A DNA stretch of 64,000 nt, taken from the NCBI RefSeq assembly GCF_905475395.1, contig NC_058337.1, positions 12,884,983 to 12,948,982 of the forward strand. Reading direction: 5' to 3'. Positions within the stretch are counted from its first letter, which is position 1. Every line of letters starts with the position of its first letter. The notes under the pieces are model-generated. The model was not told the DNA's origin and made no database searches. It was given only the letters and a program-made list of their open reading frames with translations. This document shows positions 1,831 through 60,841 of this stretch, piece after piece. The stretch comes from Chrysoperla carnea (taxonomy: Eukaryota > Arthropoda > Insecta > Neuroptera > Chrysopidae). The position numbers and the translations under genes are program-made.

Positions 1831-2883
1831 ATGGCAAATAATTCATTTGTTGACACAAATAATCATTTGTTTATCAGTAAAGAAAATATTAAACTTGAAA
1901 AAGAATTACAAACAGAATTTGATGACAATGTTGTAATGGAAATTGGTCAAATTAAAAGTGAAATATCAGAAGAAGTCAGCAATGACATTGATAATGTTCC
2001 AAATGTAAAACGTGAACCTGTTAAAAATATTAAACTTGAAAAAGAATTACATACAGAATTAATTGTTAAAAATGAAATACTAGATGACAATCTTGCGATA
2101 GAAGTTGTACGAATTAAAAATGAAATACCAGAAGAAGACACCAATAATAGTGATAATGTTATAAGTGTTAAACATGAACCCGTTCACGACAATGATAAAC
2201 AATTGTACACAATTAATGATGAAAATATTAAAGTTAAAAAAGAATTACATACAGTGTATATTAAAAGTGAAATATTAGATGAAACTGTTTTAGGAGAAAA
2301 ATCATTTTCATGTGATATTTGTAATAAAACATTTACTTATCAACATAATTTAGTTGTGCATAAACGTATTCATAGTGGAGAGAAACCATTTTCATGTGAT
2401 ATTTGTAATAAAACATTTACTCAGCAAAGTCATTTACTTCAACATAAACGGGTACATAGTGGAGAAAAACAATTTTCATGTGATATTTGTAATAAAACAT
2501 TCAATCAGGAATCTAATTTAGCTATACATAAACGTATTCACAGTGGAAATAAACCATTTTCATGTGATATATGTAATAAAACATTTACTTATCATCATAC
2601 TTTAGTTAAACATAAACGTATTCACAGTGGAGATAGACCATTTTCATGTGATATTTGTAATAAAAGATTTACTTTTCAACATGATTTAGTTAGGCATAAA
2701 CGGATACATAGTGGAGAAAAACCATTTTCATGTGATATTTGTAAGAAAACATTTACTCAGCAAGGTTATTTAGTTCAACATAAACGAATTCATAGTGGAG
2801 AGAAATCATTTTTATGTGATATTTGTAATAAAACGTTTACTCAGCAACGTTATTTAGTTCAACATAAACGTATTCACAATTGA
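1831..2883 (+). CDS. C2H2 zinc-finger protein, seven fingers
   Basis: This is a 350-residue open frame with no sign of introns, starting at an ATG preceded by AAAACAAA. Residues about 159-350 are seven tandem C2H2 fingers of 28 residues each, with C-x2-C and H-x3-H ligands joined by HSGEKP-type linkers. Such arrays normally bind DNA, so a nuclear transcription regulator is likely, but the target is unknown. Residues 1-158 are acidic and built from three degenerate copies of a module beginning like ENIKLEKELQTE. They contain many psi-K-x-E motifs (IKSE, VKRE, VKNE, IKNE, VKHE, VKKE), which fit the SUMO-acceptor consensus. The N-terminus resembles that of the zinc-finger gene at 60842-61960, so the two are paralogues. 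A dispersed repeat starts about 26 bp after the stop, so the 3' UTR probably lies in repeat DNA. Confidence 0.88.
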   Translation: MANNSFVDTNNHLFISKENIKLEKELQTEFDDNVVMEIGQIKSEISEEVSNDIDNVPNVKREPVKNIKLEKELHTELIVKNEILDDNLAIEVVRIKNEIPEEDTNNSDNVISVKHEPVHDNDKQLYTINDENIKVKKELHTVYIKSEILDETVLGEKSFSCDICNKTFTYQHNLVVHKRIHSGEKPFSCDICNKTFTQQSHLLQHKRVHSGEKQFSCDICNKTFNQESNLAIHKRIHSGNKPFSCDICNKTFTYHHTLVKHKRIHSGDRPFSCDICNKRFTFQHDLVRHKRIHSGEKPFSCDICKKTFTQQGYLVQHKRIHSGEKSFLCDICNKTFTQQRYLVQHKRIHN

Positions 2884-4380: not shown

Positions 4381-5237
4381 TACAAGATGGACCATTTTAA
4401 TCTATTATAGCTAAAAGCTCGTTTTGTAGTTAACTAATAAAAAAATAGCTAAAACAAAAGTTATAGAATTTGATGGAAGACATCATGTTCTGACATCAAA
4501 TTGGACCTAATTCTCCGGATTGCTTTCAATAGTCAATTTAAATTATTTCAGTTTAATTCTGAAACTTAACAGTAGAAGCCTTGTTTTTGTGAGTGTGTAA
4601 TATAAAATACAATTTCATTATTATTAGAAAATAATTATCATTATTACTGAATAAAAGTGTCTTTTGTGTCAGTAGAAAAACTGAGAAAGTTAGTTTATTT
4701 TCAGAAGAAACAAAGGCTATATCTAAGACAATTTTACAATCACGAAAGCATCACAGACTTAATAAAACCGCGAATCTCTGAGCTGGGGCTGCATTCGACA
4801 ATTTCGATAGATTTGATGCTACGAAAACTGGAAAAGACACTCTCCAAAATACCGTCGGGATAATCTTATCAAAATATTGACCATATAGCTTTGGAGCCAA
4901 TATTACAGAATTGTATTTTTATTAAATAATTTGTGTTAAATGAACAATAAGAATAAAAATTTAGTTATTTTCTTTTTACCACCATTGTATGTTTATGTTT
5001 ATTATTTGCTTCTTCCTTGTAATCGATCCATCTTTCCCATAATCTACTTTAAATCATTAAATCTATTATTTTCTATAATAATAACAAATTTTTTTTCAAA
5101 TGTAATCGTTTCCGAAGGCTGTGTCTCGCTATGAACAATGGGCATAGTACAAGTTTTTTAATTCTAGAAAAATACTAGATTTAAGATATTTTCAAAAAAC
5201 TAACTGAACATTGTATTTGTCCTGATCTAAAAAAAAA
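4381..5237. other. Intergenic DNA with a partial foldback-element arm (R11)
   Basis: About 4383-4580 matches the left arm of the foldback element at 7705-8478, sharing blocks such as GACATCATGTTCT and GACCTAATTCTCCGG. The rest has no gene I can support. The frames at 4657-4863 and 4940-5134 have no recognisable protein features. Confidence 0.55.
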
Positions 5238-7162: not shown

Positions 7163-10100
7163 ATGGCAGTGCATACGGTATTACTTGATTTTTCATTTGA
7201 TCCTGCGTTAGGGAAAACAGATAATCAAGTCTCAAATATGTTAACTAAAGTGGAAAACATATTAAAGGATTATTTACATACTTTGAAAATTATTCATAGT
7301 ATGCATTTGGATGGTGGCTTCGTAAAAATTTTCACCAGTGAAAAAGGATGTATGGTTACTCTACGAACTTATGATCATGGTTTGTTAACAATTACTTGGG
7401 AATATTATAAAGCTGATAATCAAGAACCACTTCTGAATTTAGAGGTATCAATTGTAATATTTTAGCTTTTTTGATTAAGGTTGGATTTAATTTTCTTGAT
7501 TAACTAAGAGCCTTCCTTTGCTATGGCACTAGTTATGAAGTTCAAATTTTATTTTATTTTATAATGATTTATGAGGTGCTGGGCTTTATAAGACATGAAA
7601 CTGAGAAAAGCCTTATAATATTTACACCGAAGTTTGAATTTTAGTTGGATAATCTAATATAAATAATAAAAAACATGTTACTCAAACTACTCTAATTTTT
7701 ATCAAAATATACAGAGTGAATCATTTTAATCAATCTATTATGGCAAATAGCTCGTTTTAAAATTAATCTACAAAAAATAACTTTGTAGTTAGCCAATCAA
7801 AAAATAACTAAACAAAAGTTGCAGAGTTTGATAGGGGACATCATGTTCTCTGACATCAGATTAGACCTAATTCTCCGGGTTGCATTAATAGTCAATTTAG
7901 ATTCTAAAAGTTAAGAAATAGAATAACACTTTAAATTAGAAAGTTGATCCTCATAAAAAACTAACCTTTTTTATTTAAAAACTTTTTTCGAAAATCGTTA
8001 ACTTTCGAAATAAATGGTACTTAAAAATATGTCGTTATTGCATTTAATCGAAAGAAAATACGCTAGTTTTTGATAAATTATTTTAGGAAAGTTATCAAGG
8101 ATAATAAAGATCATTCGCCTGCGTTAATAAGTTTTAAGACCAAGTAAATTTTTCAAGATCATCTTCAAGGTCATCCCTTTTCAAATGCCCTTGAAAAGAT
8201 ATATTTTTCCGTAGTTAGCATGTTTTTTTTCGACTAAATGCAATAATGACATATTATTAAGTGCATTTTCTCTGAAAGCTAACGATGATCAAAAAAAAAT
8301 TTCAAACAAAAAATGATAGTTTTTTTATGAAAATTAACTTTATAATTTTTAGCGTTATTCTATCCTTTACCTTTTAGGATCTAAATTGATTATTATTAAG
8401 GTATTTGTTGATTGATTAACTACTAAAACTAGCCATACTCATTACTCATAGTAGATTGAAATGGTCTACCCTGTATATGTATATTAACTTCATACTTATA
8501 GGACAGTAAATTATCAAATTTTTCAGTTATTTGACGTTAAGTACTCCGAATTTCAATAATTTGGAAGATATTGACATTTCGAAATATGCTTAAATGACTT
8601 TTTGCTTAGAATTCATCCCTCTATCGATGGTTACCACAACCTGGACAAAAGCACCACTCAGCATCATAGAACTTTAGTTTCTTGGGGTCTTATATACTTA
8701 CCGTCAAATTTTCAATTCAATCGGAGTTATAGGAAATTATTTAGAGGTTTAACCCTCGTATACTGTACTATACAGATGATAAGGAAGTGATTTTGGGAAT
8801 TAAAATCTTTAGTCATTGGATTATGTGAGGAAACTTAAACAAATTTGTTTCTGGCATAATTTAAAAAAAAGAAAATATCGAAATATTCGTAAATGAAATA
8901 ATATGATTTATGTAATTTTAGTCTGATTTTGGTATAGAATATAGTAGTATTTATATAATTTTTACAGTGTTCCAAGTCTTTAGAACAAAAATTACGAGTA
9001 TCTTTAGACAGTTATCGCCATAAATTATTTCCACCAATAAAACGTGGTGCCAAATTCGATGTGTATTTGTCGAGTTCAGGTTAGCAGCTTTCATGAAGAA
9101 TTTAATTCTATTTTAAATGTTTTATTTAGATCAAATGTTTATAAAAATCACCTTTTGTTTGAATGCATCAACATTTTCACATTGTTCGTTTTTTTAAATG
9201 CCGTTTTGGTTTACTCTTCCATGGAATGTTTAGTTTATTATATTTATATTTATATTTACATAATACAACAAAGCATGATGTAATGTTGTAAATTGTAATC
9301 GAAAGATTTTCCAATTTTTATCTATAAGCTATTTTTAATGTGTATAGAAGATAAATATTTTTTTTATGTTTAAATTTATTATTTTAGGCCACCAATTCTC
9401 GACATCGATTAAATATATAGTACAATCATCCTATATTTTTAAATCGCATTCTTGGAGGGAAGTCCGACTTTTTTGGTTACAGTTAGGGCGGTTAGTGTCG
9501 TCAAACATATGTTTAAATTTCAAAGGGCGTTATAGTACCCCATGGGGGAAGGCAGCCAAGTTCGCATGAATATGATTTTGTTGAAGACACTCAGACAAAC
9601 TTTTTCCATCAGCTTTCATTGTAGAAACTATTGTAAAAACATAAAAGTGCAATTTAAAAAAATTTTAAACGCCCGGTATCGGGTACGGAACCCTAAACTT
9701 GAACTTGAAACGTATCTAAGAACACTCTTCATTAAATTACCTTCTTCCTTAGAGCCTTCTCCAAACAGAACCGATTTTGACGATCAAGGCCTATTTTTGA
9801 GTTTTTTCGGTTATGGAACCCTAAACTCGCACTTGAAACATGGCTAAGAACAATCCTCATTAAATTATCTTTCAAACGAAAAAAAATCCAATTCGGTTCA
9901 TCCGTTTAGGTGCTACGATGCCATAGACAAATACACAGACACATAGAAAGAAAAACCAACACACATAGCGGTCAAACTTATAACAACTCTTTTTTGGTTC
10001 GGGGGTTAAAAATATATGTCAACAAGTGAAATTTACAAAATTTCAAACCCCCCACGAAATTAAAAAAAATTATATTACCTTTCAAACGAAACAAAAAAAA

Positions 10101-13100
10101 TCCAAATCGGATTATCCGTTTAGGCGCTACGATGCCACAGACAGACACACACATAGCGGTCAAACTTATAACACCCCTTTTTTCGGTCGGGGGGTTAAAA
10201 TGTCCCATATTGCACATGCGTCTACAATTATACATCTTACAAACGACTTCAATTGTATAATAGGCTTTAATTTTTTGGACTTGGATAATTTCCAATTTTT
10301 TCTTACTAAATGACTGATTAAAGTGACATTAAGAAACAGGTGGATTGTTATGAAATATTGTAAATAAAAATATGATTTGACTAATTGCCACCAAAGTTGT
10401 CTAAAATAACATTTGAATGAGAAATATTTTCGATAATAAAATATTTATGAAATTTATTATCGGTATACAAGATCTGAAAACCGTTATAATTTATTTTAAA
10501 TGTTTGAAAACTGAAACAATTCAATAATCCTTTCTTTTTTTTTGTAATATGTGGCTTCTTCCTTTTTTGTTTGCATGAATTTTGTGTTTATAGCGAGTAC
10601 GAGAACTTGAACGTCAGATATTAGAGGACATTGAAGATTTGAAACGAAGTGAATCATTCATCCCAATTAAACGGGGAACGTTTATGAGATATTATCCAAC
10701 AGCAGGTAAGTTTATTATTAATTTTAGTTGGAGAACTCGCGTCTTAGATATGTACAAGTATTACGAAAAGTTATATTTTAATATTAGTTAATCTATTTAT
10801 GTGGACTTAAAGAGAGGGTGGGTTAACAAATTTAACATTTTTACGTAAAATTTAAAATCAGCCGCCCCAAAAACTCCCTTAAACGTCATTAAATGTATTA
10901 ATTTAAAAAAAAAAATGATTCTTTTGATTTTGAGAGTATTTCAGACTGCGAAAGGGAGGGGGAGGTGCATAAAGGAGTTTATTAATAAAAATATCTTAAA
11001 TTTCAGATTAGTTTAGCATTTTGACCTTATTAAAAATTTCTTCAATCCAATGGCACGGAGGTTAAAACTAAAAAGTTTCATTTTAAACCATATAGACTTT
11101 TTTAGGATAATTTCCTGAAGCCAATGCAAAAAACCGCAAGTCAATACACCCTGTGATCTACGGGTTGCCTACGCCTTTAATTGGGTCGAGTTAGCACGGG
11201 TCTGCGGGTACTTTGTCCCTTGCGTTCACCGTGTGATAATTGAAACTATTTTCCTTAATTAAAGAAATATTTTAAGCGTTCACTATCTCCGCAACCGAAT
11301 TCATAATTTACGTAAAAATTTACGTCATTTGGTTTTTTCCCTGACGTCCTAGAATCGTTTTTAAGAAAAGTCGCTTAACTGAACTTTTACCAATTTCAAT
11401 CAGCTCTACAAATTTAGTAATAATATGTCCATTTGACAAAGATAAAGGTTAAAACCTCTACATAGAATGCTAGAGCAGGGGGTTAATGGTAGCGGAATTG
11501 AAAAAAAACTTTCTGCCTCAAACTTAAAAACTTATTAAATCACGAAGTTTTAGAGATCAGTTAGTCAGTATATAAACTAATATTAAAATATAAATTTTTT
11601 CGAATTGTGTATGCATTTAATACTGTAGCTTCTCCAAAATTAAATAATAAAACTAAATATTGAAGACAATGAGTTGAAAACACTGGTAAATAAGTAAAAT
11701 TTATATAAATTTTATATTGTAGATTGATCACCTAGTAATTTTGCACACTTTAGCAGAGTAGAGTTAGTTTAATTTTTATAGTTATAATTTTTATGATCAT
11801 TATTTTAGTATTAAGATATTAGTTTTATTGGTACAAGAACTGACAACTTATTTTCGTAAATTAATTTTAAGAAGGGTGAATTTCGGACATTTCTTATTGA
11901 AATTAGGGATGAAGTACATATTGCGTCTGAGATCGGATGAGAATGTAGAAATAAAGAGAACTATCTTGTATGAAAGACAAATTAAAAAAGTATCCAGCCG
12001 TAAGCAACAAATTATAACTCAAAAACCCGCTAAAATAACGCTAGCGTAGCAAAAGGGTGTTTAATGTGAACTTCTCTACCCTACTCTAACAACTTGTTTA
12101 AACCTTTATTTTACTCTTACTACTTTCAGCACTTATTTTAAAATTTACGCTTTGCTACTGCAGCTATTATATCACTTGCTAACGTGGCGTCATTCATTTG
12201 CTGCTTTTTGATGGACACTTTTTATAAACATAGATTATCCTCCTTATCTCTACCCCCTAGAAGGCAAACGAATTAGTATCTGGAAATTAAAATTACATTC
12301 TTTGATTTTCAAAACAAAATCATATTAAAATTATAGCCTTACATAAGGTATTTCCAGCATTATATTTGCAGTTTCTATGGTAAAACCCACTTTTCGACAG
12401 ATTTTAATGAATTTTTGTTCACAGACTAAGGATAGGGCTTACTATTAAATCCCAAAGCTTCAGAAATTTTCTCAAGTAATACTCAAACAAAACAACGTGA
12501 TGCTATTTTTTTTATGTATTCTAAAAACATTTTCCTTTTAATTCTCCTATTTTTTTGTTAGAATTCTATCGAGATAATTTTTTAATATCGTAAATAATAA
12601 CTGGGAAAACAGTGATTTTTATATTCTTTGACCCTCGAAACCGCGAACTTTGCAACTGATTATCTCGCGATCTAAACGACCAAAAATTATGCAACTCCGA
12701 GATCTCACAGAAAACATTATTCTGAGTCTGTTAAAAAAATAGACCAAATCGGTCGACAAGTGCTTTCATGCTGGAAATACCTTAAATAATTTGAAATTTT
12801 TTTTAAACTATTAGAATAGTAACTGGCGCGGTATTAGGGCCGGCAAAACTGCCTGCAAATTATACTTTATCTTGCTAAAAGATATGAAAATTGATTTTAA
12901 CAAAATTGTCTTATAATAGTTTTTAAAATTGCTCTGCCAGACGTATTTCATACCTTCCTAATCTCAATAAAAAAAAAAAACCAAAATTTAGTCATTTTGA
13001 AATTATCTTGTTCTATGAGTAATAAAATGTAAAGTTTTAGCTTATACGTGGTGTTTTTTTAATTTGATATATGGTTGAAACTAGAAAATATGTTTTATTG

Positions 13101-16100
13101 AGAAAAAAAAATGCTTCACACAAAAAAGTTCAAAGCTTTTGTTTGAAGCATTTTTTTTTTTTTTTCAAACTGAATAGCTTAGATAGTTTCAATTTCTGTC
13201 TAAAGAAATCTACGCTATTATAAATTTGTTTTTGCAATTTTTGTAAAAAAGTAAGATATAATTTTGGGTACGACTTTGCAGTCAGTTTCAGTATTAAAAA
13301 ATGCAGTTTTCGAAAAAATGATTCAAATAAAAATTGTTACCTTTTAAATTAGGATTAACTTTCTAATTTAAAGTTTTCTTGTATCTCTTATCGGTTATAA
13401 AGCAGAATGATGATTGCGTGAAATTGCGGGCCAATGAACCCCATAGTTTTCTTGAAGTATTTTTCTTGAATTTTCGACTTTTAATCACATGTCTAGTTAA
13501 AAAAAAACACTCCGTATATATGTTCAATATGTGATTGAAGTCTTTAGCCACCTTTTATCGGATTGTAAAGCCTTCCTTTCACAATTATTGGTTCCGATAC
13601 CTGGCTCTCATCCAGAAGGCGGGAACTCTGGTTTGATTCTCGGTATTGGAAGCAATTATGTAAAGGCTTGTCCTTACATATAAAGATGAATTATGAAGAT
13701 AAAAATAAAACAACCTAAATATCTTGTCTTGTCCACATTCTGAGGGTAATAGTTAAATTATCCAAAGTAATATCATTATATGGTATTCATGGATCTAATT
13801 TATCTTGAATAAGATCAATGAAAAATAAAAATCATTAAGTGGTAAGGGAACTCAGATACAGGAAAAGGTTCCAAGCAGAAGTTGTTCATATCAAAGGGAA
13901 GCATCTCATAGGCACCTTGAATTGGATCTTGAAATTAAAGGTCAGTTAAAGGTCAACTCGTTCTTATTACCTGTAAAAAATAGAAGAGCAATTAAAATAT
14001 GAAAGTTATTCTTTATAAGAAAACTAAAAGGTCTGCGGCCAAGCGTAGTTTTAGTGAGCCAATACCACGTCCTCAATCGTAAGCGTATTTCGCGTTCTGG
14101 GGGGCTTTGGCCCAGATTGTCCGCAATGGCTTTGGACGGGGAGGCGATTTAGCTTATCCGCAACGCTATATATGTCGTTTCAATCCGGAAACTGATTTCA
14201 GAATGGCTGCAAATGCAAATCTATCCACTTGAAACTTTCTTTTGAAGATGGGGAAGCATTGTAGATGGGAAAGTTTAATCAGTCCGCAATCAGAAAAAAT
14301 TTAATTCAAAGAGATAGGAATATCTGTTGAAAACGGGGAAAAAGCTTACGGTATAGAAGGCAATGTTGGCTAACAACTATGAAATTTTCAGCCTTTCTGG
14401 AACGACTCATTAAAACTACGCTTGGCTACAGACCCATAATAATTTTGAAATTAAGTTTGATCATCAGATACGAGAGTTTGAATGTTTTTTTTTTTAATGT
14501 CAAAGTGAAATTTTTCTTAATCTTATCCAAAATAAAAAAATTTCTATTTTAAAATGGTCCTCTATCTCTTATCAGTAACGAAAACGAGTTGATTTTAAAT
14601 TGAACTTGGAGGACATTTTGTCATTATGATATGTACCCCAATGCAAACTTTCGTGTTACAGATCTGGACACCTATCAACCGTCGCATATTGATCAAGACG
14701 AACCGATTTCTTTATTCTAGGTCCATTAACTCCCAAATAGATCTCCGGCCCTTGACCCATCCGTGTAAAGATATGGTCCGGAAGGGGGTGAAAACTTAGG
14801 TACATTTCTATCCCATTCCTTGCGATTAAAACGGTAAATCGGAACAGTGGAATTCTGTACCATTTCTACAAGTGGAATCACAGTCTCCAACCTGATCATT
14901 ATAATCGCAAGATCTTTCTTCGTCTTACAGTGCCACTGTCTGCAGCTTCGAAGTTGGTTGGCGGCTGTCATGGCTTCCCCTTAAACATTAACTTATTAAA
15001 TGGTGGTTGAGGACTTTTAGGACATATTGTATATTGTATATTACAGTTATAACTTTTAAAAATAAATATTTTTCAAAAAAAAAATTTAGTGACGCATTCT
15101 TAGATAGAACTAATATCTTAAACAAAAGTTTCTTATTTTTTCCAAACAAAACGAATCTGCTTGAAATATGAAATTATATAATTAAAAATTTTGTTGTTCT
15201 TCATTTTACCTTGAAACCTGCCCTGCTGGAAAAAATATTTAAAGAGTCTTAAAAGTTAAGTCTTAATAAGTTTTAGAAACTCTGAATAACTCCGAATTTC
15301 TCAACGTTTTTGGACTGTCTAATTCAGAGTTATCCAAACTTATTAAGTCTGAAAGAGTTATTCAGAGTTCCTAAGACTTTTTTTAGAGTTTATAAGACTT
15401 ATTCTTTCTTCTTATTCGGAAAAATATTTTTGCATCAGGGTCGCTAATGAAAAAACTGATATCGGTAATATAGTCTAGTCGATAAGTTGAAAATGATGAA
15501 AAATAGAGATTCTGCTCTTAAAAATATGTGCGATAGCTCGTTGATTTCGGAAGGATGTCTAGAAAAATGTGCCGCAGGCGTTTTTTAGCACATAAAAAAT
15601 TGCAAAAGTTATAAACAATTAAAAATGGAAAAAAAAAAGTATGTAGTTTTTCGTCAATATTTCATAAAATATTAAAATTTATGAAATTTAAAAAATACAT
15701 TCTTAAAGAGGAGGAAATTTCCAATGAAAAATTCTGATCACTCTCGGAAGTCTATCTCCATTATTTATAATTTTAATTTAACGCTGAAAAAAGCTCTCAC
15801 GTCATTTTTAGGTTTTTGTAGTAGCCTGAATTCGACTTTTTTTCTCAGATATAAACCGTTTGAAGTTTCAGAAAAATTTTAATTTTTCTAAAATGTGTCA
15901 CCTTTTTAAAGGCGAGTGTACTTCTTTCCACATAGACAACAATTTTTGTAAAAAATGTCTTTTTCAATAATGTACCCCTGGTAAAATAAATGCTTGATTC
16001 ATTTGAAATGAACGCTCTGTATATTTATTGTGTGAATTAAGGTAAAAATAATTTTTTATTTTTTAGATGAACGTTTATTAGAATATGATATCGACAAGTT

Positions 16101-19100
16101 GTTATTTGAAGAACGATCACCATTTCAACGAGTTCAAATTGTACATTCCAAAAGTCTTGGAAACATGTTGGTTCTTGATGAATTACAAAGTAATACATTT
16201 AAAAATATATTTACATCAAATATATCTTATAAAATCTATTATGCTTCTAGATATTTCTGAAAGAGATCTCATATATACTGAAACCCTAATGCGAAGAGGA
16301 ATAGAAAACTATGAAAATAAAGAAATTATAATATTGGGTAAGCAAAATAACTAAATTTATATATTTAACGTATTATCAATACGTTATTGGTTCGAAGGAA
16401 GATTTTAAATAAACTGTCAGTTTATACAAGTAATTTTAAACTCAAAATAAGTGAATATTCTTAAATTACCTTAGACTTGTAAAATAATGTATCATATAGA
16501 TGCAGTACCATAGACTTGAAGAATATTACATATTCGTTGTGTGCGTAGTCATGGTAGGGATAATAAAATCGATGCCAGCGCTTTAAGTGAAAAATTTTGG
16601 AGATAAAGGGGGCTGTTATGACTAATTTGCAATTCTTTACATGTTAATGATATAGAAACTGTCAAATTAAAATGATTGAAAAACACTAATTAATTAAACT
16701 TAATGCATTAAAAATTGTGAAAGTAAGAAATCAAATTGTACAAATATTATTTTTCAAATGTAAATTATCATAATTATTTATTTAAATTTGTGAAACAAGA
16801 ATATTAAATTTTAAATGTAAGTTTTCAATGCAATCCATACAATTATATATGCATCCATACAATTCTATAATTAAAGTAGTGTATCGTTGTCATGGAAACG
16901 AAACTCACGCACGGAGCGAATAGAAATATTAATATTGGTCGTTAGTAACCACATACTATTATTTTCTAAATATATTTCCCTAAACTCAAGGTATTAGGTT
17001 CAGTGACAATTAAGGAGGGCGTAATGTATGCTCGATTTTACTTATATCTTTACATGTAGAATTTGAATAGCTATTCAAATTCTATTTTTAGAAGTTAAAG
17101 AGCGACTATTTAGAAGAAAAAAACTTGAAATTCATAGTTTAAATGATATTAAATAAGATACACGTAAAATCGTGCATACATTACGCTTCCCTCAATTGTT
17201 ACTGAACCGAATGCCTAGAGTTTTAGGGAAAATATAGTTTCCGATCTGCTTAAAAAAATCCAAATGAAGTTTTTTCACCTGGACTATCTTTATTTGGATG
17301 CAAGAAATCGTCTATGAAAAGTCCATTGAAAAATCATGTGCGCTAAAAAAATTATTCGAGGTCAAAGGTCGCGTTAATAGTTTTTTTTTTTCAAATATCT
17401 CGTAAAATATTAGTTTATGGCAGTTTTAGATATTATAACATTTGTTCATAAGTTAATTTTAAATTTAAAAAATCAAAAAAATTAAATTTTAAAGGTGGTG
17501 GAGATGGTGCTTTATTGTATGAATTATTAAAAGAAAAACCAAAAATGGTGACTATGTTAGAAATTGACGAAGTGGTTTTAAAAGCATGTAATGAGTATAT
17601 GAAGTCAATTTGTGGAAATGTTTTAGAAAAACGTAGAGATACTAATTATGAGGTATTCAATTCAATTTATTCATTCTTTTTTAAACAATAAAAATATTAT
17701 ACAGAACATGTCATAAAAAAAGAGATAAAGAAAATGAAAGGAAGGGGGAAAGGAGAAATAGGTTTTCATACTGAATATTAAATATGTTAAAATCGATTCG
17801 CATTCAGAAAATGTGCGTTTTCCATGAAAACGTTAACAGTTAGGTATAGGAAAGTTGATGCTATTTGATAAAGAATTGCATTTTACATCTGCTGTTGACT
17901 TAAAAAAAAAGAGTGTTCTATTTAACTTTAGTCATAATTTCGGCACAACCTGTATACGCCATTCAATTATTCACAGTTGCGACATAAAACTCAATTGATT
18001 ACTAGACTTCAAGTTGAATTTGGTTTGGAAAACGGAAATAATACTTAATACGTATACGTTAAAATTGCTACTAAATTTTCAGAAAATCATGAATTTTAAG
18101 TAAGGTAAACACTGATGAAACTTACTTTTATTTTCACCGTAGAACTTGAAAATAAAATAATATACAAACTGTTCCATTTAAAAAAAAAAAATACAACTTT
18201 GATAATTTTCGTGTTTTTCGTGTAATTTTAAAAAGTACAGCCAATAAGCCTATCTATCCCGGAATGAAAATTTTCTTAAAATCAAGGAGGTTAGTCACAA
18301 TCTTTCGTGTCGTTTAACGTGAATAGCCCTGTGCATATAATTCGTGTAGATTATGGCAAGTAAATTAAATTATTGTAGATTATAGCAACTATAGTAAGGA
18401 CATTTTTAAGATAGAAAAATTAATAAAATTAAAATATGTCTACTATAAATTATAATATGATTGCCAACATTATTTGACATACCTAGATGCTTGCAGTCAT
18501 TTTATCTACTTAAGACGGCGACATACTCCTACAGGACGACATGTCTAAATTAATGTTTTCAAATTTTTTGATATTGCAACCCTAAAATGCTTTCAATAAT
18601 CATTTCTGAAGTTTTGTGTTTTAATAAATTTTATCTTTTAGATTATTATTGGTGATTGTATGAAGTCTATTGATAAATATATCGAAGAAGGGCGAAAATT
18701 TGATTATGTGTTTGGTGATTTAACAGATATTCCAATATCTGACACTCCAAGTGGTGAAATATGGAATTTTATTATGACTATATTAGATAAATCCTTCAAA
18801 GTACTTAAACCAACTGGAAAATTTATGACACATGTAAGCTTTAATCATTAATAATAAATACTTTGCTTATAGTTGTAAACAAATGAAACCTCAAAAAATA
18901 TTGGTAATGTGATTTTTAGTTTCCGTTGTCAAATGGCAAAAAAAGAATCCTATATTCATTTTTTTTTTTGGTCTCTAGTGCGTTTGGTCTCTAGTGTGCC
19001 ACATAGGAACACTCGACAAGAACACCCGACTGCGCATCGCGCAGCCGAGTAAAAATTCTCAATCACAAAAAACTATAAACCATAATTTTTCTGATTGCGG

Positions 19101-19809
19101 ACTGAGTAAATTCTCCCACCTATATTGCGGACGATATGATTTTTGTGATTTTCAGAATTAATTCTTCATGTGAACAAATTTTCATTCTAAAATCGGTTTC
19201 CTGATTAGATTGAACCGACATATTTAGCATTGCGGGCTAGCTAAACCCTCAATTCCCACTACCATTGCGAATGATCTCACATCGACTATATTTTTTTGGA
19301 ATATTTGTCTATTAAAACCGGTTTTACCCTTTCTGAAATCAGTTCAAACTTGAGACAGACGCTGCATTTTTAACATTATCTTGAGGCGAAAGCTCCCCCC
19401 CCCCCCTTCTATGGAATTTTCAGCTTTTTTAAATGATTTACTAAAACTACACTTGGTCGCAGAAATATTAAATGCTATTAACGTCTCAAATTTCTGTCCT
19501 TAACAAAATGAATTGATAAAATTTACCCTGTCCCTAGACCTAATATTAATAAAAAAAATGTGGTAAACATCCTTTTATCGATGAATATTTACCAGTTTAA
19601 CCCTAAAAGCAATGGATTTTACAGGATAAAAGAAAATTTGTTTTTTTTTCTAGGGAAATGGTGTAAATTCACCCGAATCATTAATTATGTATGAAAATCA
19701 ATTAGCCAAGTTAAGGCCGCCAGTTAAGTTTGAAAAATGTACAGCATTTATTCCGTCGTTTATGGAAGACTGGGTATTTTATCAAATTTGTTTTGATTCG
19801 AAACCCTAA
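7163..19809 (+). CDS. Spermine synthase, complete, with alternative second exon
   Basis: Spermine synthase transfers an aminopropyl group from decarboxylated S-adenosylmethionine to spermidine in the cytosol. Coding exons: 7163-7444, then either 8968-9079 or 10594-10705, then 16067-16189, 16251-16337, 17495-17652, 18642-18833 and 19654-19809. All have GT-AG borders and compatible phases (0,1,1,1,0,0). The product is 369 residues, against 366 in human. The start follows TGGTAAAA and reads MAVHTVLLDFSFD. Visible signatures are LLEYDID, the GGGDG cofactor loop (about 202-206, made across a splice junction), LEIDE, and FGDLTDIPIS. Acidic residues D178, D280 and E356 fall where I align the human catalytic Asp201, Asp276 and Glu353. 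Intron 3 is only 61 bp, while intron 2 (after exon 2b) is 5.4 kb. A candidate AATAAA lies at 20063-20068. Confidence 0.95.
7445..8967. repeat. Spermine synthase intron 1 with foldback element R11
   Basis: About 7705-8478 is a foldback element. The left arm (TATACAGAGTGAATCATTTT onward, including ATGTCGTTATTGCATTTAAT) returns in inverted form on the right (ATGCAATAATGACATATT onward, ending near GGTCTACCCTGTATA). A partial copy of the left arm lies at 4383-4580. The open frame at 8602-8790 lies just beyond the element and has no recognisable feature. Confidence 0.6.
8968..9079 (+). CDS. Spermine synthase alternative exon 2a
   Basis: This 112-nt exon enters in phase 0 and leaves in phase 1, after a TTTTTACAG acceptor and before a GTTAGC donor. 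It encodes 37 residues plus one base, including SLEQKLRVSL and PPIKRGAKFDVYLSSS. With exon 3 it gives PPIKRG...SSSDER, the same spacing as human PPIVRG...PTADGR. It lacks the Y-x-PTA part of that motif. Its length and phases equal those of exon 10594-10705, and the two proteins align (L-E near the start, PIKRG near the end), so one arose by duplication of the other. The donor is weaker than that of 2b. Confidence 0.85.
9655..10197 (+). repeat. Dispersed repeat R3 (two partial copies in tandem)
   Basis: The family shows a GGTACGGAACCCTAAACTCG-type block, then ACATGGCTAAGAACA, then GGTTCATCCGTTTAGG and CTACGATGCCACAGACAGAC, ending in CAAACTTATAACACCCC. The second half (10026-10197) repeats the 3' part, so two partial copies lie head to tail. 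Other copies are at 20703-21047, 38925-39085 and 49330-49775. The open frames in this stretch on both strands are shadows of the repeat. It sits between the two alternative exons of spermine synthase. Confidence 0.75.
10594..10705 (+). CDS. Spermine synthase alternative exon 2b
   Basis: This exon is also 112 nt with phases 0 and 1. The acceptor is GTTTATAG and the donor is the consensus CAG|GTAAG. It encodes RVRELERQILEDIEDLKRSE, then PIKRGTFMRYYPTA, and is completed to PTADERLLEYD by exon 3. The YYPTAD element is the form conserved in known spermine synthases, so this looks like the canonical exon, though it is one residue shorter than human between the RG and Y-x-P-T-A-D. It lies 1.5 kb downstream of 2a, with copies of repeat R3 between them. 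Confidence 0.9.
12346..12782. mobile_element. R4 MITE with TA target site, copy 1
   Basis: The ends are inverted repeats, AGGTATTTCCAGCAT on the left and ATGCTGGAAATACCT on the right, directly flanked by TA on both sides. This 437-bp element has no coding capacity. TA flanks and such TIRs fit a Tc1/mariner-type MITE. Two further copies, also TA-flanked, are at 34888-35659 and 41490-41984 and share the internal blocks CGACAGATTTTAA and TCTCGCGATCTAAACGACC. Confidence 0.85.
14726..14971 (-). pseudogene. Relic of a LINE RNase H region
   Basis: The reverse strand encodes an 81-residue frame with TAANQLRSCRQWHC near its start and PYLYTDGSRAGD near its end. The YTDGS stretch with its catalytic aspartate, preceded by a region rich in arginine and tryptophan, is the pattern seen at the RNase H border of insect non-LTR retrotransposons (I, R1 and Jockey-like groups). 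The frame opens shortly after a stop and closes soon after YTDGS, so neither reverse transcriptase nor the rest of RNase H is present. I read it as a dead fragment within the spermine synthase intron. The family assignment is from motif memory only. Confidence 0.55.
15530..15815 (+). repeat. Dispersed repeat R7, copy 1
   Basis: The stretch contains GCGATAGCTCGTTG and ATGTGCCGCAGGCGTTTTTT. It matches the reverse complement of 43855-44130 (CCAACGAGCTATC and CGCTTTCGGCACATTTTTCT) over about 270 bp. No coding potential is seen. Confidence 0.65.
16338..17494. repeat. Spermine synthase intron with repeat R5 and a palindromic MITE
   Basis: 16531-16921 is repeat R5, nearly the same as 57851-58244 over about 390 bp (both start near TTCGTTGTGTGCGTAGTCAT and end near CTCACGCACGG). 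About 16989-17216 is a separate element of about 225 bp with inverted ends of some 60 bp (TTCAGTGACAATTAAGGAGG on the left, CCCTCAATTGTTACTGAACC on the right) and a central palindrome (TTTGAATAGCTATTCAAA). Neither encodes protein. Confidence 0.75.
17653..18641 (+). repeat. Spermine synthase intron with repeat R8
   Basis: About 17935-18215 matches 50965-51205 in the same orientation. Shared blocks include ACTCAATTGATTA, CGTTAAAATTGCTACTA and TTTTCACCGTAGAA versus TTTTGATCGTAGAA. No exon is seen in the rest of the intron. Confidence 0.6.
18834..19653. repeat. Last spermine synthase intron, repeat-derived
   Basis: About 19075-19300 is an inverted relative of 14035-14320, sharing TGATTGCGGACTGA, GCGGACGATATG and TAGATTGAACCGACATAT with its reverse complement. 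A C-run (CCCCCCCCCC) lies at about 19396. There is no coding sequence. Confidence 0.55.
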
Positions 19810-20400: not shown

Positions 20401-21335
20401 AACATACACGGGGTGCATAAGTATTTATACAAAAAATTGAGTAATATCAAACTTATTTATTTCTGTTTTTAAAATTCGCTTATATTGATTTTTATACCAA
20501 TTTCTAAGAACGAGTTATTCACCGACAAAGCAAAATGGACACTTTTCACTTAAAACTGTCGTAACTCCTCAAATAATGACCTTACAGAAATAAACCTGAA
20601 CCATTCAAAAGGGCCGACGGTTCAAATTGTGGGAAAAAATTTTCTAGTTGTTTATGAACTTTGAAGGGGTGTACGGGGTTCTTAAAGTTTTTCTTATAAA
20701 AAATCTTATAACAGTGAAATTTACAAAATTTAAAAAAAAAACCCGACAAATTTTACGGCTACGGCACCCTAAACTCGCATTTGAAACATATTTAAGAACA
20801 TTCTCCATTAAATTGCCTTTTTCCTTAAATCCTTTTCCAAACTGTGCCAAATTGGAAAATCATCGCCAATTTTTAATTTTTTCGGGTACGGAACCCTAAA
20901 TTCGCACTTGAAACATAGATAAAAACACTCACTCCATTAAATTACCTTTCAAACAAAACCAAAAAATAAAAATTGGTTCATCCATTTAAGCGCTACGCAT
21001 AGCGATCAAACTTATAACATCCCTTTTTTAGTTCGGGGACTAAAAATACTCGATAGCTTGTTAATTTCTTTTTAAAACTCGTTACTATTCAACCTCGTAC
21101 GAGCTTTCGTGACTAATTTATTCACTGTCAAATAAAAATTGCTACAAAAAAAACAACAATAAATCTAAAAAATCACTTTTTCAACAAAACATTTACTAAC
21201 AATGATAAAAAATACAAAAAATTATGGGAGTTCAGATTTATTTCTATAAGGTCATTATTTTAGGCGACACAGTAATTTAATGTGAAAAGTGTCTACTCTG
21301 CTTTGTCGCTAAATAACTCGGTCTTAAAAGTTCGT
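20401..21335. mobile_element. Foldback element with an R3 repeat nested in its centre
   Basis: The outer arms, about 20505-20605 and 21220-21330, are inverted copies. The left reads ACAAAGCAAAATGGACACTT and GACCTTACAGAAATAAA; the right reads TTTATTTCTATAAGGTC and AAGTGTCTACTCTGCTTTGT. Between them, 20703-21047 is a copy of R3 (CTACGGCACCCTAAACTCGC to CAAACTTATAACATCCC). R3 therefore appears to have inserted into an older foldback element. The open frames here on both strands are not genes. Confidence 0.7.
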
Positions 21336-26594: not shown

Positions 26595-30790
<4,196 letters not shown>

Positions 30791-38578: not shown

Positions 38579-39538
38579 TATTATGTAATAGTGAAGTGCC
38601 TGGTCGGTTGGAGTGGAGTTTTGATCTCGGATTTCCGGAATTAGGAATGAATTTATTTGATCGAAGTGGATTTTTAATTTGTTTAATCATTTATTTTTAA
38701 CCTTGAGATTTACCGTTTAAACGATAGTTCTACCCCTTTTTTATCACTTCTATCGCTCTACAGTCTCTTTTCTGAATCAACCGATTTTTAGAAATTTTTT
38801 TAACAAATAAAAAATAGGAGCAAATAGATACATAATAAATAAAAAATAGAAGCAAATAGATAGGATAATAAATAAATAAATTTCTAGAAATGTCTCTCCA
38901 AACTGAACCGATTTTGAATATCATCGGCCCTTTTTTAGCTGTTTCGGGTACGGAACCTTAAACTCGCACTTTAAACATAACTAAGAACGCTCTCCTTAAA
39001 TCAGTTCATCTGTTTAGGAGCTACGATGCCACAGACAGGCATACATAACGGTCAAACTTATAACACGCATCTTCGGGGGTTAAAAATCGAGATAAAATTT
39101 TGTTTAATTGTAAACTTGTTCATATATATTATAAGCTAAACATTCTATATATTTTTTCATTTTTCATTCACTATCTCGGAATTCAGAGCATTTTATGTTT
39201 TCAATACTCCAGGAACTCCACTATAAAATAAATAAAAATATTAGACTTGATTAAGACACTGACTCATTAATAAGATGAATTACGCAATTAAATTACGTAA
39301 GAAAAATGATGGTCACAGCGTTGGTGGTCGAGGCATTATCGCAAGTTGATTAAAAGAATATAATACAGGCGTAATTTTATTTTTTAGAGGCTTTTTATTC
39401 TGTCATTCACAAAAATAATCATGCAATACAATTGAAAGATCCAAATAGCCGCCATACCGCCGCCTTTGCGTATGTCATGACGATTTTTGTGAATGACAGA
39501 AAGAAAATGATCAGTCAAAAAAAAAATTAACTCTCTAT
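38579..39538. repeat. R3 copy and a small inverted repeat
   Basis: 38925-39085 is an R3 fragment (GGGTACGGAACCTTAAACTC to GCTACGATGCCACAGACAGG). About 39395-39507 contains an inverted repeat with CTGTCATTCACAAAAAT on the left and ATTTTTGTGAATGACAG on the right. No gene is seen. Confidence 0.65.
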
Positions 39539-44465: not shown

Positions 44466-47400
44466 TTATGGTAAAAGTTTTTCATTACTAGAACTTAAAT
44501 TTGGTAACGATTTAAATAATGATTTATTTTTATCAAAATTGGTTCTATTCGGTACATCATGTAATGAGATCATAGAATTTTTGCCAACTCTTGATTTTGA
44601 ATGTTCAATATCTAAAGCTAACATTTCTTGAATATCAATTTCCAATGGATCAAAATCAGTTTTTTGAAGTGAATCTTTGGATGTTGATTCATTTGAACTT
44701 TTACTTTGAGCTTTCTGTCTGTCTCCAGCTCCGCCGCCCCCCGCACATTCAATAATATTATATGGCTGAACTGAAGCATAACGTATATCTTCTTCACTGC
44801 TACCAGCAGTTAATGTTGGAGTTACATTTTCAGTATTTGTTTGTGTAATATTCGATTCTAAATTATTTTTTTCACCAAATACATAACTACTTTCTAATTT
44901 GATAGATGTGATATTTTGTTTGGGTATCACATTTGCAATAATGGCAATTTGTGAACTACCTGGTATTTCGCTAACATCTTCATGGTATGATGGAGTGTTG
45001 CCCAGAGTTGGCTCATGACTTAAATTGTTTAAACTATTATTTTCTATATTTGCAATTACTTGTGCTGGTCGACTGGACGTTTGTCTAGTATTTGCAATGG
45101 CATTTGGACGAATTGATACACGAAACGTTGGTGATGGTGGTGCCACACTTTTTTCTGGTGCATTTTGTATTAAAATTATTCTATAACAAATCAAATAATT
45201 TATTTTATTTATCATGTTAAAATATAATAATACACTTAATCCAATTAATCTACGGAGACCCAATTTTAAACAAAATTGCTATCAGAAAATTATTTGTTAT
45301 TCTGATGTATGAGTTAGATTATTAAAAGTTTCATAAAAATACATTGAGTAGTTTTTACGTGAAAGCGTAACAAACAAAGTTACTTTCGTATTTATAATAT
45401 ATAAAGATAGGGATTATAGCTGAAAGTAGGCTATGATTTGAAAAAAATGTCAAATTAATTTTTATAAGATATTATTATTAATTTAATATTCTAGGATATC
45501 ACAATCAAAAAATCTATGAACCCTAACTTTCTGCCGCGTGGTAAATAAGCTCCTGTGTCGGTGTGGAACATTTTCTCTCATAGGACATATGTATGGCAGG
45601 ATGATCATTTTCCAAATAGAGGGGCGTGTTAAAATCTCGGGGAAAAAAGTGGACGCTAACCGTCTGGAAGCAACGGTAAGTCAAAGCATCCATATTTTAT
45701 AAATCGGGGAAAATAGGTGCAGGCAAAAAAACTAAGGCGATTTTGGAGGGAAGTGGGATTGAAGTAAACCGGAAAAAAAGTGGATCCTAACCGGATAAAT
45801 TCAAGCGCGGGAGAATTCTCGAACACTATAGTAAAACAAAGTAAGTAAAACTGAATATTTTTACCGCTTGCAAAATAACTTCCATAACGACCACACAAAC
45901 GTTATACAATACTGGTAGACATTTGATAAGCAACAGCTTCACTACATAGCATAACACAAAGTCGCTTTCCGCTGTCTGTCTGTCCCTATGTATGCTTAGA
46001 TCTTTAAAACTACGCAACAGATTTTGATGTGGTTTTTTTAATAGATAAAATGATTCAAGAGGAAGGTTTATATATATATAATACATGCATAATATAGTAG
46101 AGTCCACTGATAATTTTAGGGGCCGGGGCGTATCGCTAGTACCCTATATAAAGAAACGTTGTACACTAAAAATTTGTTTTAATTACCTATTATGTGCGCG
46201 CCAACGATAACATAAATGTAAATATTGTCGACATTGAATATACATAAATACAGCTCCACCCGTAAAACCCACTGCTACAACTACTAATTTTGTCCAAAAA
46301 GGCCAATCTATAAGTCCTTTTTGTACTTCTTCTGTTGCTCTATCAATGAGAACAAACAAAGACCATATCACACATAACGCAGCCACGCAATGAAATAATA
46401 CTGCACAACATAAACGTCTTCTTTCAACGCCTGACATTTCTAATCTTCGCCACTGTAAACAAACAAAATCAATTATTAGATTTTAAATATTGAAAATAAC
46501 AACTAACACAAATAAATGTAATTAGCGTTAATATAACCAGTCTGTTAACTCTATGTAAAATGCATTAGAAACATATGTTCCCTTATTGATGTACGCGTTA
46601 GTTCCCAAAACTGCTACATAGCAACGCCACCAGTATCGAATCCAAATCACTGGCCAATAATTTATTTACAGTCAAACCTGGGTAAATGAGAACTGGATAA
46701 GTGAGAAAACTCTATAAGTGAGAGTAAACGCCAGGACCCGTCATTTTAAGATCCAAAAACCTCTATTAGCGAGAAACAGAAACCTCTGTAAGAGTCGTTT
46801 TTCCCTCATGGACCTCCGTAAGTGAAACTGCTACTTATCTATACTTCTATAAGCGACAGTCATTTTATCATATTACATATTTACTACATTTGTACTTGCT
46901 GTGACTTGTTATTGCTGCGTACCTGTATAAAAGAGAAACGCTACCCATGTACCTGCATTAGCAAGAAACTCAGGTTAGTGAGAAAGCTCTATAAGCGAGA
47001 ATGAGATTGTGCTCCCTTGAACTCTCGCTTATCCAGGTTTGACTGTATTTATAATTAATTTTTATTTCAGCAAATATTATTATCAATTAATTAAAATTAT
47101 TTATTAATTTAATGAAAATATAAATATAATTTAAACAAAAATAAAACTTGTTTATTTATTTTAAATTTTCGACTAATACCCCAATTTGGATTCGACATAT
47201 GTGGCGCTGTCTAATGTTTAATAATGTAACTAACACACATACAAACATGTCTCACAAATATAACTGATATTCCCATATTAATGGGAATACAAACTATAAA
47301 ATTTGCACATAATTTGCGCTCTCGTGGGTATACAGTGATGTTTATAAGAAAATGTTTTAAACAAAAGTTGTTTATTTTTTTTATACGGAACATTCTTTAC

Positions 47401-57185: not shown

Positions 57186-57850
57186 TTTATTATTATTTAT
57201 AAAATTCACAATTGATTTCGTCACATAATTGCTTATTTTCTATTTTATCTATGCTTTATTAATTTATTATATATATATATATATTTATTTTTTTATTAGC
57301 GTTTATAATTATTTAAGAGGTGTTTTTTTATTATTCTCTTTTGTATTTTTTATTCAACACAATTGCATAATGAATATGTATATTAACATATGTACATAAT
57401 ATGCTCTATTCAATACAATATTGTTTGTGAATTTTGTTCTGTCAAATTGATCAAATCAGTCTAATATTAAAATATTTTACTATTTTCATATTGTAGGAGT
57501 GGCGACAAAAATAGCTATTATTTTAGGGTGCATTCATTATTGTCTCTACAAAATCATCTTTCAAACACTAGTACTGCATACATGATGATGTCCTGTTCCT
57601 GTACTATAATGACCACAATGACATACAGCAATATAACATAAAATTCTAAGTATAACAGTACTTAGAAGATTCTCGATTCGATGTAAATATTTTTATTTTT
57701 TTAGAACCAAGTTCCATAACGTGGCTTGTCATGGTGAGCTAACTTGTAGAAATCGCCCCGTAACGTTGCAATTGTGTAATCTAATGTGTATGTGTATGCC
57801 ATGCCCAGCAGCCTACAATCAACTGTTTTGTTTGTGTGTGTAACGTGTAT
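57186..57850. other. Upstream region of the MARCH8-type gene
   Basis: This should hold the 5' UTR and promoter of the gene on the - strand. A TA run lies at about 57266-57282. No core promoter motif or other gene is recognised. Confidence 0.4.
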
Positions 57851-60055: not shown

Positions 60056-60841
60056 ATAAATTGATTTTTCCTATATCTTCTGCAGAATCTAATTTTTTTT
60101 CGAGAAACATATACGTTTCTCTATCTCTTACCTTTTTTAAAAGTTAAAATACATTAAAATATAGATTTCTAGATTCAATTCTAAATACATAATTCGGTTT
60201 CCAAAAAAAATGTTCCGGGCAAAAAATGAATCTTCTAATAAGAAACCACTTTTTAATTTAACGCGTTCTTCTAAATCTTGACAATTACTAAGCAGAGACC
60301 TATGAACTCATTTTTTCATAGTAGCATTTTTTTCAAATCGTCTATTTTTGAGTTTTAAGGACGCTGTCTTGCTATAATATTGCAGAAAAGTTTTGTATTA
60401 TATGCACGGTAAGAGACTAAGAGTCAATGAACTTGTAGTGAAATGAAGTATAATTTTTGTGTAATACTGCACCAACGATGCCATTTCATACACGAGAAGT
60501 CAAAATGGTGTCTGATAGTCACAATAAAGTATGCAATATTTCAAATCTGTTTTAAACTAAATCGAACGGTCCCTACGTTCAGCTGTAGTAACATCAAATA
60601 GGATATTATCTCTATTGTGAGAAATATACACGTTCTATTAAATAGTTTGAGACTCAATAGAGCTCTTACTAAGAGCTCTGTACAGTCAGTACAGTCCTCG
60701 CAGTGTAAAATAGAACGCACCCTAAGATACTTAGCCTCCATACTTAAAAATATTGCGAATGGCGTTATTTGTAAATTGCATAGAAGTAATATCAAACCTT
60801 TTTGGTAAATTGTCATAATTTGAGTGAACCGAATAAAAGAA
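60056..60841. other. Upstream flank of the second zinc-finger gene
   Basis: No gene is supported. The frames at 60541-60816 (-) and 60617-60808 (+) overlap on opposite strands. About 60650-60690 has an AGAGCTCTTACTAAGAGCTCT palindrome followed by CAGTCAGTACAGTC. Confidence 0.4.

What the first reader, a model, noticed from the sequence alone, without database searches (positions are those of the whole stretch)
8968..10705. Spermine synthase has a pair of mutually exclusive second exons locked by reading frame
Exons 8968-9079 and 10594-10705 are both 112 nt, both enter in phase 0 and leave in phase 1, and encode alignable peptides (both with L-E near the start and PIKRG near the end). Joining 2a to 2b gives GCG AGT ACG AGA ACT TGA, a stop after five codons. 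Skipping both gives ATG AAC GTT TAT TAG, also a stop. Only single inclusion yields a full protein. The segment links the N-terminal dimer domain to the catalytic part; 2b keeps the YYPTAD form while 2a has VYLSSSD. Two enzyme isoforms, or one active and one altered form, are therefore expected.
Basis: partly seen in the sequence, partly recalled or inferred. Interest (0 to 1): 0.85.

Follow-up and report, generated by a model that had tools for sequence, protein, structure and literature searches.

The report
Spermine synthase's two swappable second exons
An arthropod gene for the enzyme that makes spermine carries two alternative versions of one exon that fit the protein only one at a time, so the animal can probably make two forms of the enzyme that differ next to its dimer contact and substrate pocket.

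Summary
The window holds an intact spermine synthase gene (7163-19809, + strand; seven exons per transcript) with two candidate second exons, 8968-9079 (2a) and 10594-10705 (2b). Each is 112 nt, phase 0 in and phase 1 out, with AG/GT borders. Either one gives a 369-aa enzyme; both, or neither, give an early stop. The two isoforms match human spermine synthase equally well (301.5 and 301.3 bits). In 0 of 400 shuffled introns did a candidate score as high as 2a. Simulated neutral decay kept open frame, splice sites and similarity in 12 and 6 of 200,000 runs. I read 2a and 2b as an old, diverged exon duplication with both copies kept by selection.

Each copy keeps a different part of the human motif: 2a the Pro-Pro turn (human P112), 2b the Tyr-Pro-Thr-Ala-Asp loop. 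The catalytic aspartates lie in shared exons. The frame lock suffices to explain exclusion; no RNA pairing stood out. Not shown: that either exon is used in RNA. No relatives could be fetched. A paper reports two isoforms of the fly gene; whether they are this pair could not be checked. New member of a known kind.

The parts
7163..7444 (+). exon 1 of spermine synthase (ATG; 94 codons, leaves in phase 0), N-terminal dimerisation (AdoMetDC-like) domain
8968..9079 (+). exon 2a, 112 nt, phase 0 to 1, acceptor TTTTTACAG, donor CAG|GTTAGC; keeps FPPIKRG, has DVYLSSS
10594..10705 (+). exon 2b, 112 nt, phase 0 to 1, acceptor GTTTATAG, donor CAG|GTAAGT (full consensus); has FIPIKRG, keeps RYYPTA
10472..10591 (+). 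120-nt AG-free zone upstream of the 2b acceptor with pyrimidine runs; possible distant branch point
   Evidence: other six acceptors of the gene 18-58 nt; 16 of 2864 AG gaps on the + strand of the window are 120 or more, 7 of 1390 if only YAG ends are counted
16067..16189 (+). exon 3 (enters in phase 1), DERLLEYDIDKLLF..., holds the equivalent of human Q148 (Q152)
16251..16337 (+). exon 4
17495..17652 (+). exon 5, with D205, the equivalent of human D201
18642..18833 (+). exon 6, with D280, the equivalent of human D276
19654..19809 (+). exon 7 with stop codon
9080..10593 (+). 1514-nt intron between 2a and 2b; holds a dispersed repeat at about 9676-10201

Best explanation
2a and 2b descend from one exon that was duplicated in tandem long ago, and both are kept as real alternatives. 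Pre-mRNA splicing joins exon 1 to one of them and that one to exon 3. Because each is 112 nt (3n+1), transcripts with both or neither shift frame, stop early and should be removed by nonsense-mediated decay, so only single inclusion gives enzyme. The two products share the active-site aspartates but differ within a 37-residue segment that ends the dimerisation domain and forms the strand and loop leading into the substrate pocket. 2b has the ideal donor and may be the default, but this is a guess: the 2a donor is weaker only than 2b's, not than those of the shared exons. Likely effect: changed dimer stability, turnover or polyamine fit. Shown: gene structure, frames, homology; constraint is strongly suggested. 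Inferred: use in RNA, decay of wrong products, which form is default, biochemical effect.
For: Frames and stops. Equal fit of the isoforms to human spermine synthase 3c6k, 301.5 bits for 2a and 301.3 for 2b, and to three Pfam domains above curated cut-offs. Candidate scan and shuffles. 12 of 36 aligned codons encode the same residue and 8 of those 12 use different codons; mismatches by codon position are 20, 15, 26, as expected of selection on protein. Neutral-decay simulation: open frame, splice sites and score kept in 12 of 200,000 (from 2b) and 6 of 200,000 (from 2a). Donors match CAGGTAAGT at 9 of 9 (2b) and 7 of 9 (2a); the five shared-exon donors match at 5 to 7 of 9.
Against: No transcript data were available. 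No relative carrying the pair was found, so conservation is untested. Raw similarity is weak without the splice filter, with chance hits at or above it, and the global score only just reaches the 15% mark used by a published predictor (28 of 187 against 2b; 28 of 189, 14.8%, against 2a). NG86 gave no dS and two other methods failed. The decay simulation assumes that all divergence was neutral and has no indels; an exon that lost its function only recently would pass it. No RNA pairing near the splice sites beat shuffles.
Confidence: 0.82

Rival explanations
1. 2b is the only working exon and 2a is a dying duplicate that is rarely or never spliced.
For: 2a's donor is weaker than 2b's (7 of 9 against 9 of 9); it lost the W/Y-P-T-A-D loop residues. 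A recent loss of function would leave little trace.
Against: 2a's donor is as good as or better than the five shared-exon donors by matches (5 to 7 of 9), and its 18-nt distance to the previous AG is like exon 7's (19). Open frame, both splice sites and PPIKRG kept at 43.5% nucleotide identity; simulated decay keeps all this in 12 of 200,000 and 6 of 200,000 runs. 2a fits human as well as 2b does and keeps P112, which 2b lost.
Confidence: 0.08
2. 2a is the ancestral working exon and 2b is the extra or dying one.
For: 2a has the human spacing and the Pro-Pro turn; its isoform covers the SpmSyn_N profile to its end (96/96), 2b only to 82/96.
Against: 2b has a full-consensus donor and keeps RY.PTAD; same decay argument.
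Confidence: 0.03
3. Both exons are used, but exclusion is enforced by a dedicated device (paired selector and docking sequences, or a distant branch point at 2b) and not only by frame and decay.
For: 120-nt AG-free zone before 2b; gaps this long are 16 of 2864 on the strand. Distant branch points enforce OGDH exon 4a/4b exclusion (PMC7969005 passages).
Against: In OGDH the separating intron is 118-131 nt in birds and mammals; here it is 1514 nt, too long for steric exclusion. None of six splice-site regions paired better than shuffles (11 to 24 of 25 shuffles were as good or better). Inverted repeat 8949-8986/11673-11710 was not the best partner of the 2a acceptor region, whose best pairing did not stand out.
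Confidence: 0.25

Closest known systems
Internal homologous mutually exclusive exons of insects (Dscam1, Mhc, 14-3-3zeta and others; Kassiopeia/WebScipio sets)
   Same: Equal length, phase, splice type and detectable homology of neighbouring exons. 261 of 1,297 annotated mutually exclusive exons of D. melanogaster are internal (PMC3923563 passages).
   Different: This one is in a polyamine enzyme and the pair is strongly diverged (12 of 36 residues identical). No paired RNA device found (low power).
OGDH exons 4a/4b (2-oxoglutarate dehydrogenase)
   Same: An ancient exon duplication in a metabolic enzyme whose choice tunes the enzyme; long AG exclusion zone before exon 4b (PMC7969005 passages).
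   Different: OGDH intron between the exons is 118-131 nt in birds and mammals; here 1514 nt.
Drosophila spermine synthase CG4300/dSms
   Different: The differing segment is in a supplementary figure I could not read; whether it is the same event is unknown.
Human spermine synthase (3c6k)
   Same: Matches either isoform at about 301 bits; D201 and D276 conserved.
   Different: No such exon pair known to me (recalled, not searched in a genome). A human variant named c.329+5G>A (PMC11203672 passages) implies a human intron after codon 110, inside this segment, so exon borders differ.

Membership tests
Homologous mutually exclusive exons (criteria of PMC3228551, passages) | about equal length | tested here: met
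   112 and 112 nt
Homologous mutually exclusive exons (criteria of PMC3228551, passages) | same splice-site type and reading-frame phase, no in-frame stop | tested here: met
   AG/GT, phase 0 to 1, open
Homologous mutually exclusive exons (criteria of PMC3228551, passages) | sequence similarity (minimal score 15% in that paper's search) | tested here: inconclusive
   28 of 187 (15.0%) against 2b, 28 of 189 (14.8%) against 2a with my own gap costs; 0 of 400 shuffles reach 28
Homologous mutually exclusive exons (criteria of PMC3228551, passages) | transcripts contain exactly one of the two | not testable with these tools
   no RNA data; frame analysis only
Mutually exclusive exons set by competing RNA pairing (Dscam type) | docking and selector sequences that pair | tested here: inconclusive
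   six 70-nt splice-site regions against 70-nt windows of 7445-16066: none better than shuffles; one sequence and 25 shuffles each, so low power
Animal spermine synthase | SpmSyn_N, Spermine_synt_N and Spermine_synth domains | tested here: met
   all three above curated cut-offs in both isoforms
Animal spermine synthase | active-site Asp pair (human D201, D276) | tested here: met
   D205 and D280 invariant in the three-row alignment, in exons 5 and 6; roles from PMC3585406 passages
Animal spermine synthase | makes spermine from spermidine | not testable with these tools
   no assay

The most novel reading that the evidence does not exclude
Splicing switches the chemistry of one polyamine enzyme: the swapped segment ends in the strand that, in spermidine synthases, carries the tryptophan forming the floor of the amine pocket (Trp28 in human, PMC12812037; Trp55/59 in Arabidopsis, PMC6514230; passages). 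At both positions that the two available alignments suggest for it, the exons differ (residue 128: L in 2a, Y in 2b; residue 131: S in 2a, A in 2b), so the isoforms may prefer different acceptors or products (spermine, thermospermine, or use of putrescine), or form mixed dimers with one altered partner.
Probability: 0.12. Interest if true: 0.78.

Novelty: new member of a known kind. Interest (0 to 1): 0.5.

Why it matters
Spermine synthase is usually thought of as one enzyme from one gene; its human loss causes Snyder-Robinson syndrome. A natural, probably splice-controlled swap of a segment that contains a disease position (P112) and borders the pocket would give two ready-made, selected variants for testing how this linker controls dimer stability and polyamine choice. 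Stony corals carry two spermine synthase paralogues, one of which makes thermospermine (PMC12803844 passages); this gene could have reached a second activity or setting by duplicating one exon only.

Tried and rejected
Searches for relatives in viral contigs and genome contigs with the 2b isoform and with a three-row alignment gave 1, 3, 276 and 117 pattern matches, none confirmed as a relative. By their descriptions these collections hold viruses and prokaryotes, so this says nothing about conservation in animals. The genome search on the window's own genome did not complete, so copies elsewhere in the genome are unchecked; within the window no third exon candidate stood out.

RNA pairing as the exclusion device: inverted repeat 8949-8986/11673-11710 over the 2a acceptor looked attractive, but the region's best pairing is no better than shuffled sequence and lies elsewhere. 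Steric exclusion was rejected because 1514 nt separate the exons; mixed U2/U12 introns were judged unlikely because all borders are GT-AG (no U12 model was run). I first took 2a for the exon with weak splice sites; one search does not bear this out, since its donor and AG spacing are within the range of the shared exons.

Mapping spermidine synthase Trp28 onto exon 2 is uncertain. phmmer's ungapped match to 2o05 puts it at A131 of the 2b isoform (the chain offset of 2 is inferred from 304 against 302 residues), while the gapped match to 2e5w pairs the Tyr-Pro of 2b with a Tyr-Pro. I give both.

Paper searches: 'CG4300' 4 papers; 'spermine synthase' with 'mutually exclusive exons' 0, with 'tandem duplicated exon' 0, with 'alternative splicing', 'insect', 'isoforms' 3, none on point from the listing, with 'Drosophila', 'exon', 'isoform' 14, one clearly on point from the listing. 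The Hatje and Kollmar 2013 paper is not held. Every paper cited was seen as passages found by term, none whole; passages of PMC3840789, PMC3303723, PMC4342090 and PMC12328646 did not bear on the exon pair.
Full report
What is there. The + strand of the window carries an intact spermine synthase gene: exons 7163-7444, 8968-9079 (2a), 10594-10705 (2b), 16067-16189, 16251-16337, 17495-17652, 18642-18833 and 19654-19809 with the stop (the ends of exons 5 and 6 were one base short and were corrected). Exon phases are consistent throughout. With 2a or with 2b the gene encodes 369 residues. With both, translation stops at codon 137; with neither, at codon 99. The organism is an arthropod by its neighbour gene: a PCNA gene starting at 26607 has its best single-copy PDB matches in 4cs5 and 4hk1 (that these are shrimp and Drosophila PCNA is recalled). 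That it is an insect is not shown.

Is 2a a real exon? Both isoforms hit human spermine synthase 3c6k with the same score (301.5 bits for 2a; 301.3 for 2b) and three Pfam domains of the family above their curated cut-offs. I listed every stretch in the window that starts after AG, ends before GT, is 82-142 nt long, has length 3n+1 and is open in phase 0: 322 on the + strand and 263 on the - strand. Variants overlapping 2a or 2b were set aside. Scored against 2b, the best remaining one is 2a (28; next unrelated 14, then 0). Scored against the human segment, the two best are 2b (33) and 2a (28); the next unrelated scores -1. In 400 dinucleotide shuffles of the introns (8398 nt) the best score was never above 15 (against 2b) or 16 (against human).

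Is 2a selected or decaying? The two exons share 12 of 36 aligned residues, and 8 of these 12 are written with different codons, including I, R and G of the PIKRG block; nucleotide identity is 43.5%, mismatches at codon positions 1, 2, 3 being 20, 15, 26. I simulated neutral substitution to this identity, without indels: open frame, both splice dinucleotides and a score of 28 survived in 12 of 200,000 runs starting from 2b and 6 of 200,000 starting from 2a. This assumes that all divergence was neutral; a copy that lost its function only recently would not be caught. NG86 gave no synonymous distance and two other methods failed. Results that weaken the case: the bare similarity is poor. BLASTP of the two peptides aligns 15 residues at 18.1 bits (E 8e-4 for one comparison). 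tblastn against the window finds 2b from 2a at E 0.55, behind a chance hit at 56266-56325; from the human segment it finds 2a at E 0.081, behind a chance hit at 55484-55401 (22.3 bits against 21.6) and level with one at 13802-13873, and 2b at E 0.29. The evidence therefore rests on similarity, frame, length, splice sites and position taken together.

What differs in the protein. Exon 2 encodes residues 95-132: the end of the dimerisation domain and the linker into the central domain. Human numbering follows from 3c6k with an offset of 15, counted by hand and checked on Q148, R130, V132 and C206 named in PMC5668419, PMC11203672 and PMC3585406 (passages). The human stretch LPPIVRGGAIDRYWPTAD (111-128) corresponds to FPPIKRGAKFDVYLSSSD with 2a and FIPIKRGT-FMRYYPTAD with 2b. 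So 2a keeps P112 and the human spacing but loses W/Y, P, T, A; 2b keeps RY and PTAD but has Ile for P112 and is one residue shorter in this stretch. P112L causes Snyder-Robinson syndrome; P112 lies at a turn in the dimer interface, and patient cells had 20.3% of control protein (PMC4730321, passages). R130C and V132G, just downstream in the part encoded here by shared exon 3, lie in the loop between the domains (PMC11203672, passages). In spermidine synthases a tryptophan of the N-terminal hairpin closes the amine pocket (Trp28, PMC12812037; Trp55/59, PMC6514230; passages). Its exact partner in this enzyme is uncertain: residue 131 by the ungapped 2o05 match, or residue 128 by extension of the gapped 2e5w match. 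Either way it is inside exon 2 and differs between 2a and 2b. The active-site aspartates (D205, D280) and the MTA-site glutamine (Q152) are in shared exons, so both isoforms could be active (inference).

How choice could work. All borders are GT-AG and the exons are 1514 nt apart, so neither steric exclusion nor mixed spliceosomes is a likely explanation. The frame lock plus nonsense-mediated decay suffices (inference). The 2b donor matches CAGGTAAGT at 9 of 9 and 2a at 7 of 9, with U1 pairing energies of -11.6 and -7.1; but the five shared-exon donors match at 5 to 7 of 9 (-1.8 to -9.2), so 2a is not weak by this gene's own standard. The 2b acceptor sits behind a 120-nt AG-free zone, longest of the gene's seven acceptors (others 18-58); gaps this long occur at 16 of 2864 AG intervals on this strand, 7 of 1390 counting YAG only. 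That is suggestive of a distant branch point, as in OGDH exons 4a/4b (PMC7969005, passages), but it is one observation among several looked at. Long-range RNA pairing at six splice-site regions was no better than 25 shuffles each.

Against what is known. Neighbouring homologous exons of equal length and phase are what published predictors look for (PMC3228551, passages; PMC3923563, passages). This pair meets length, phase and splice-type tests and sits on the similarity mark (28 of 187, or 28 of 189). [quoted passage not shown] The same event in flies is therefore quite possible and may already be annotated. I file this as a new member of a known kind, with a testable functional angle.

Noticed in passing
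window 10472-10591: 120-nt stretch without AG before the 2b acceptor, with pyrimidine runs; possible distant branch point.
   Followed up: partly
window 7886-8395: 510-bp fold-back repeat (arms about 72-78% alike) in intron 1; adjoining 7782-7903 resembles 4423-4544.
   Followed up: no
window 9676-10201: Dispersed repeat in the intron between 2a and 2b, with related pieces at 20751-21048 and 38895-39066.
   Followed up: no
window 26607-28900: PCNA gene downstream on the same strand (partial reading by eye).
   Followed up: partly
window 1831-2883 and 60824-61960: Two C2H2 zinc-finger ORFs open over their whole length, with 6 and 8 zf-C2H2 stretches passing the threshold.
   Followed up: no
window 56670-57224 (-): 184-aa ORF with a RING-variant domain; MARCH-like by recall.
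   Followed up: no
window 44466-45263 (-): 265-aa ORF without a Pfam match at E 0.001, possibly a coding exon.
   Followed up: no
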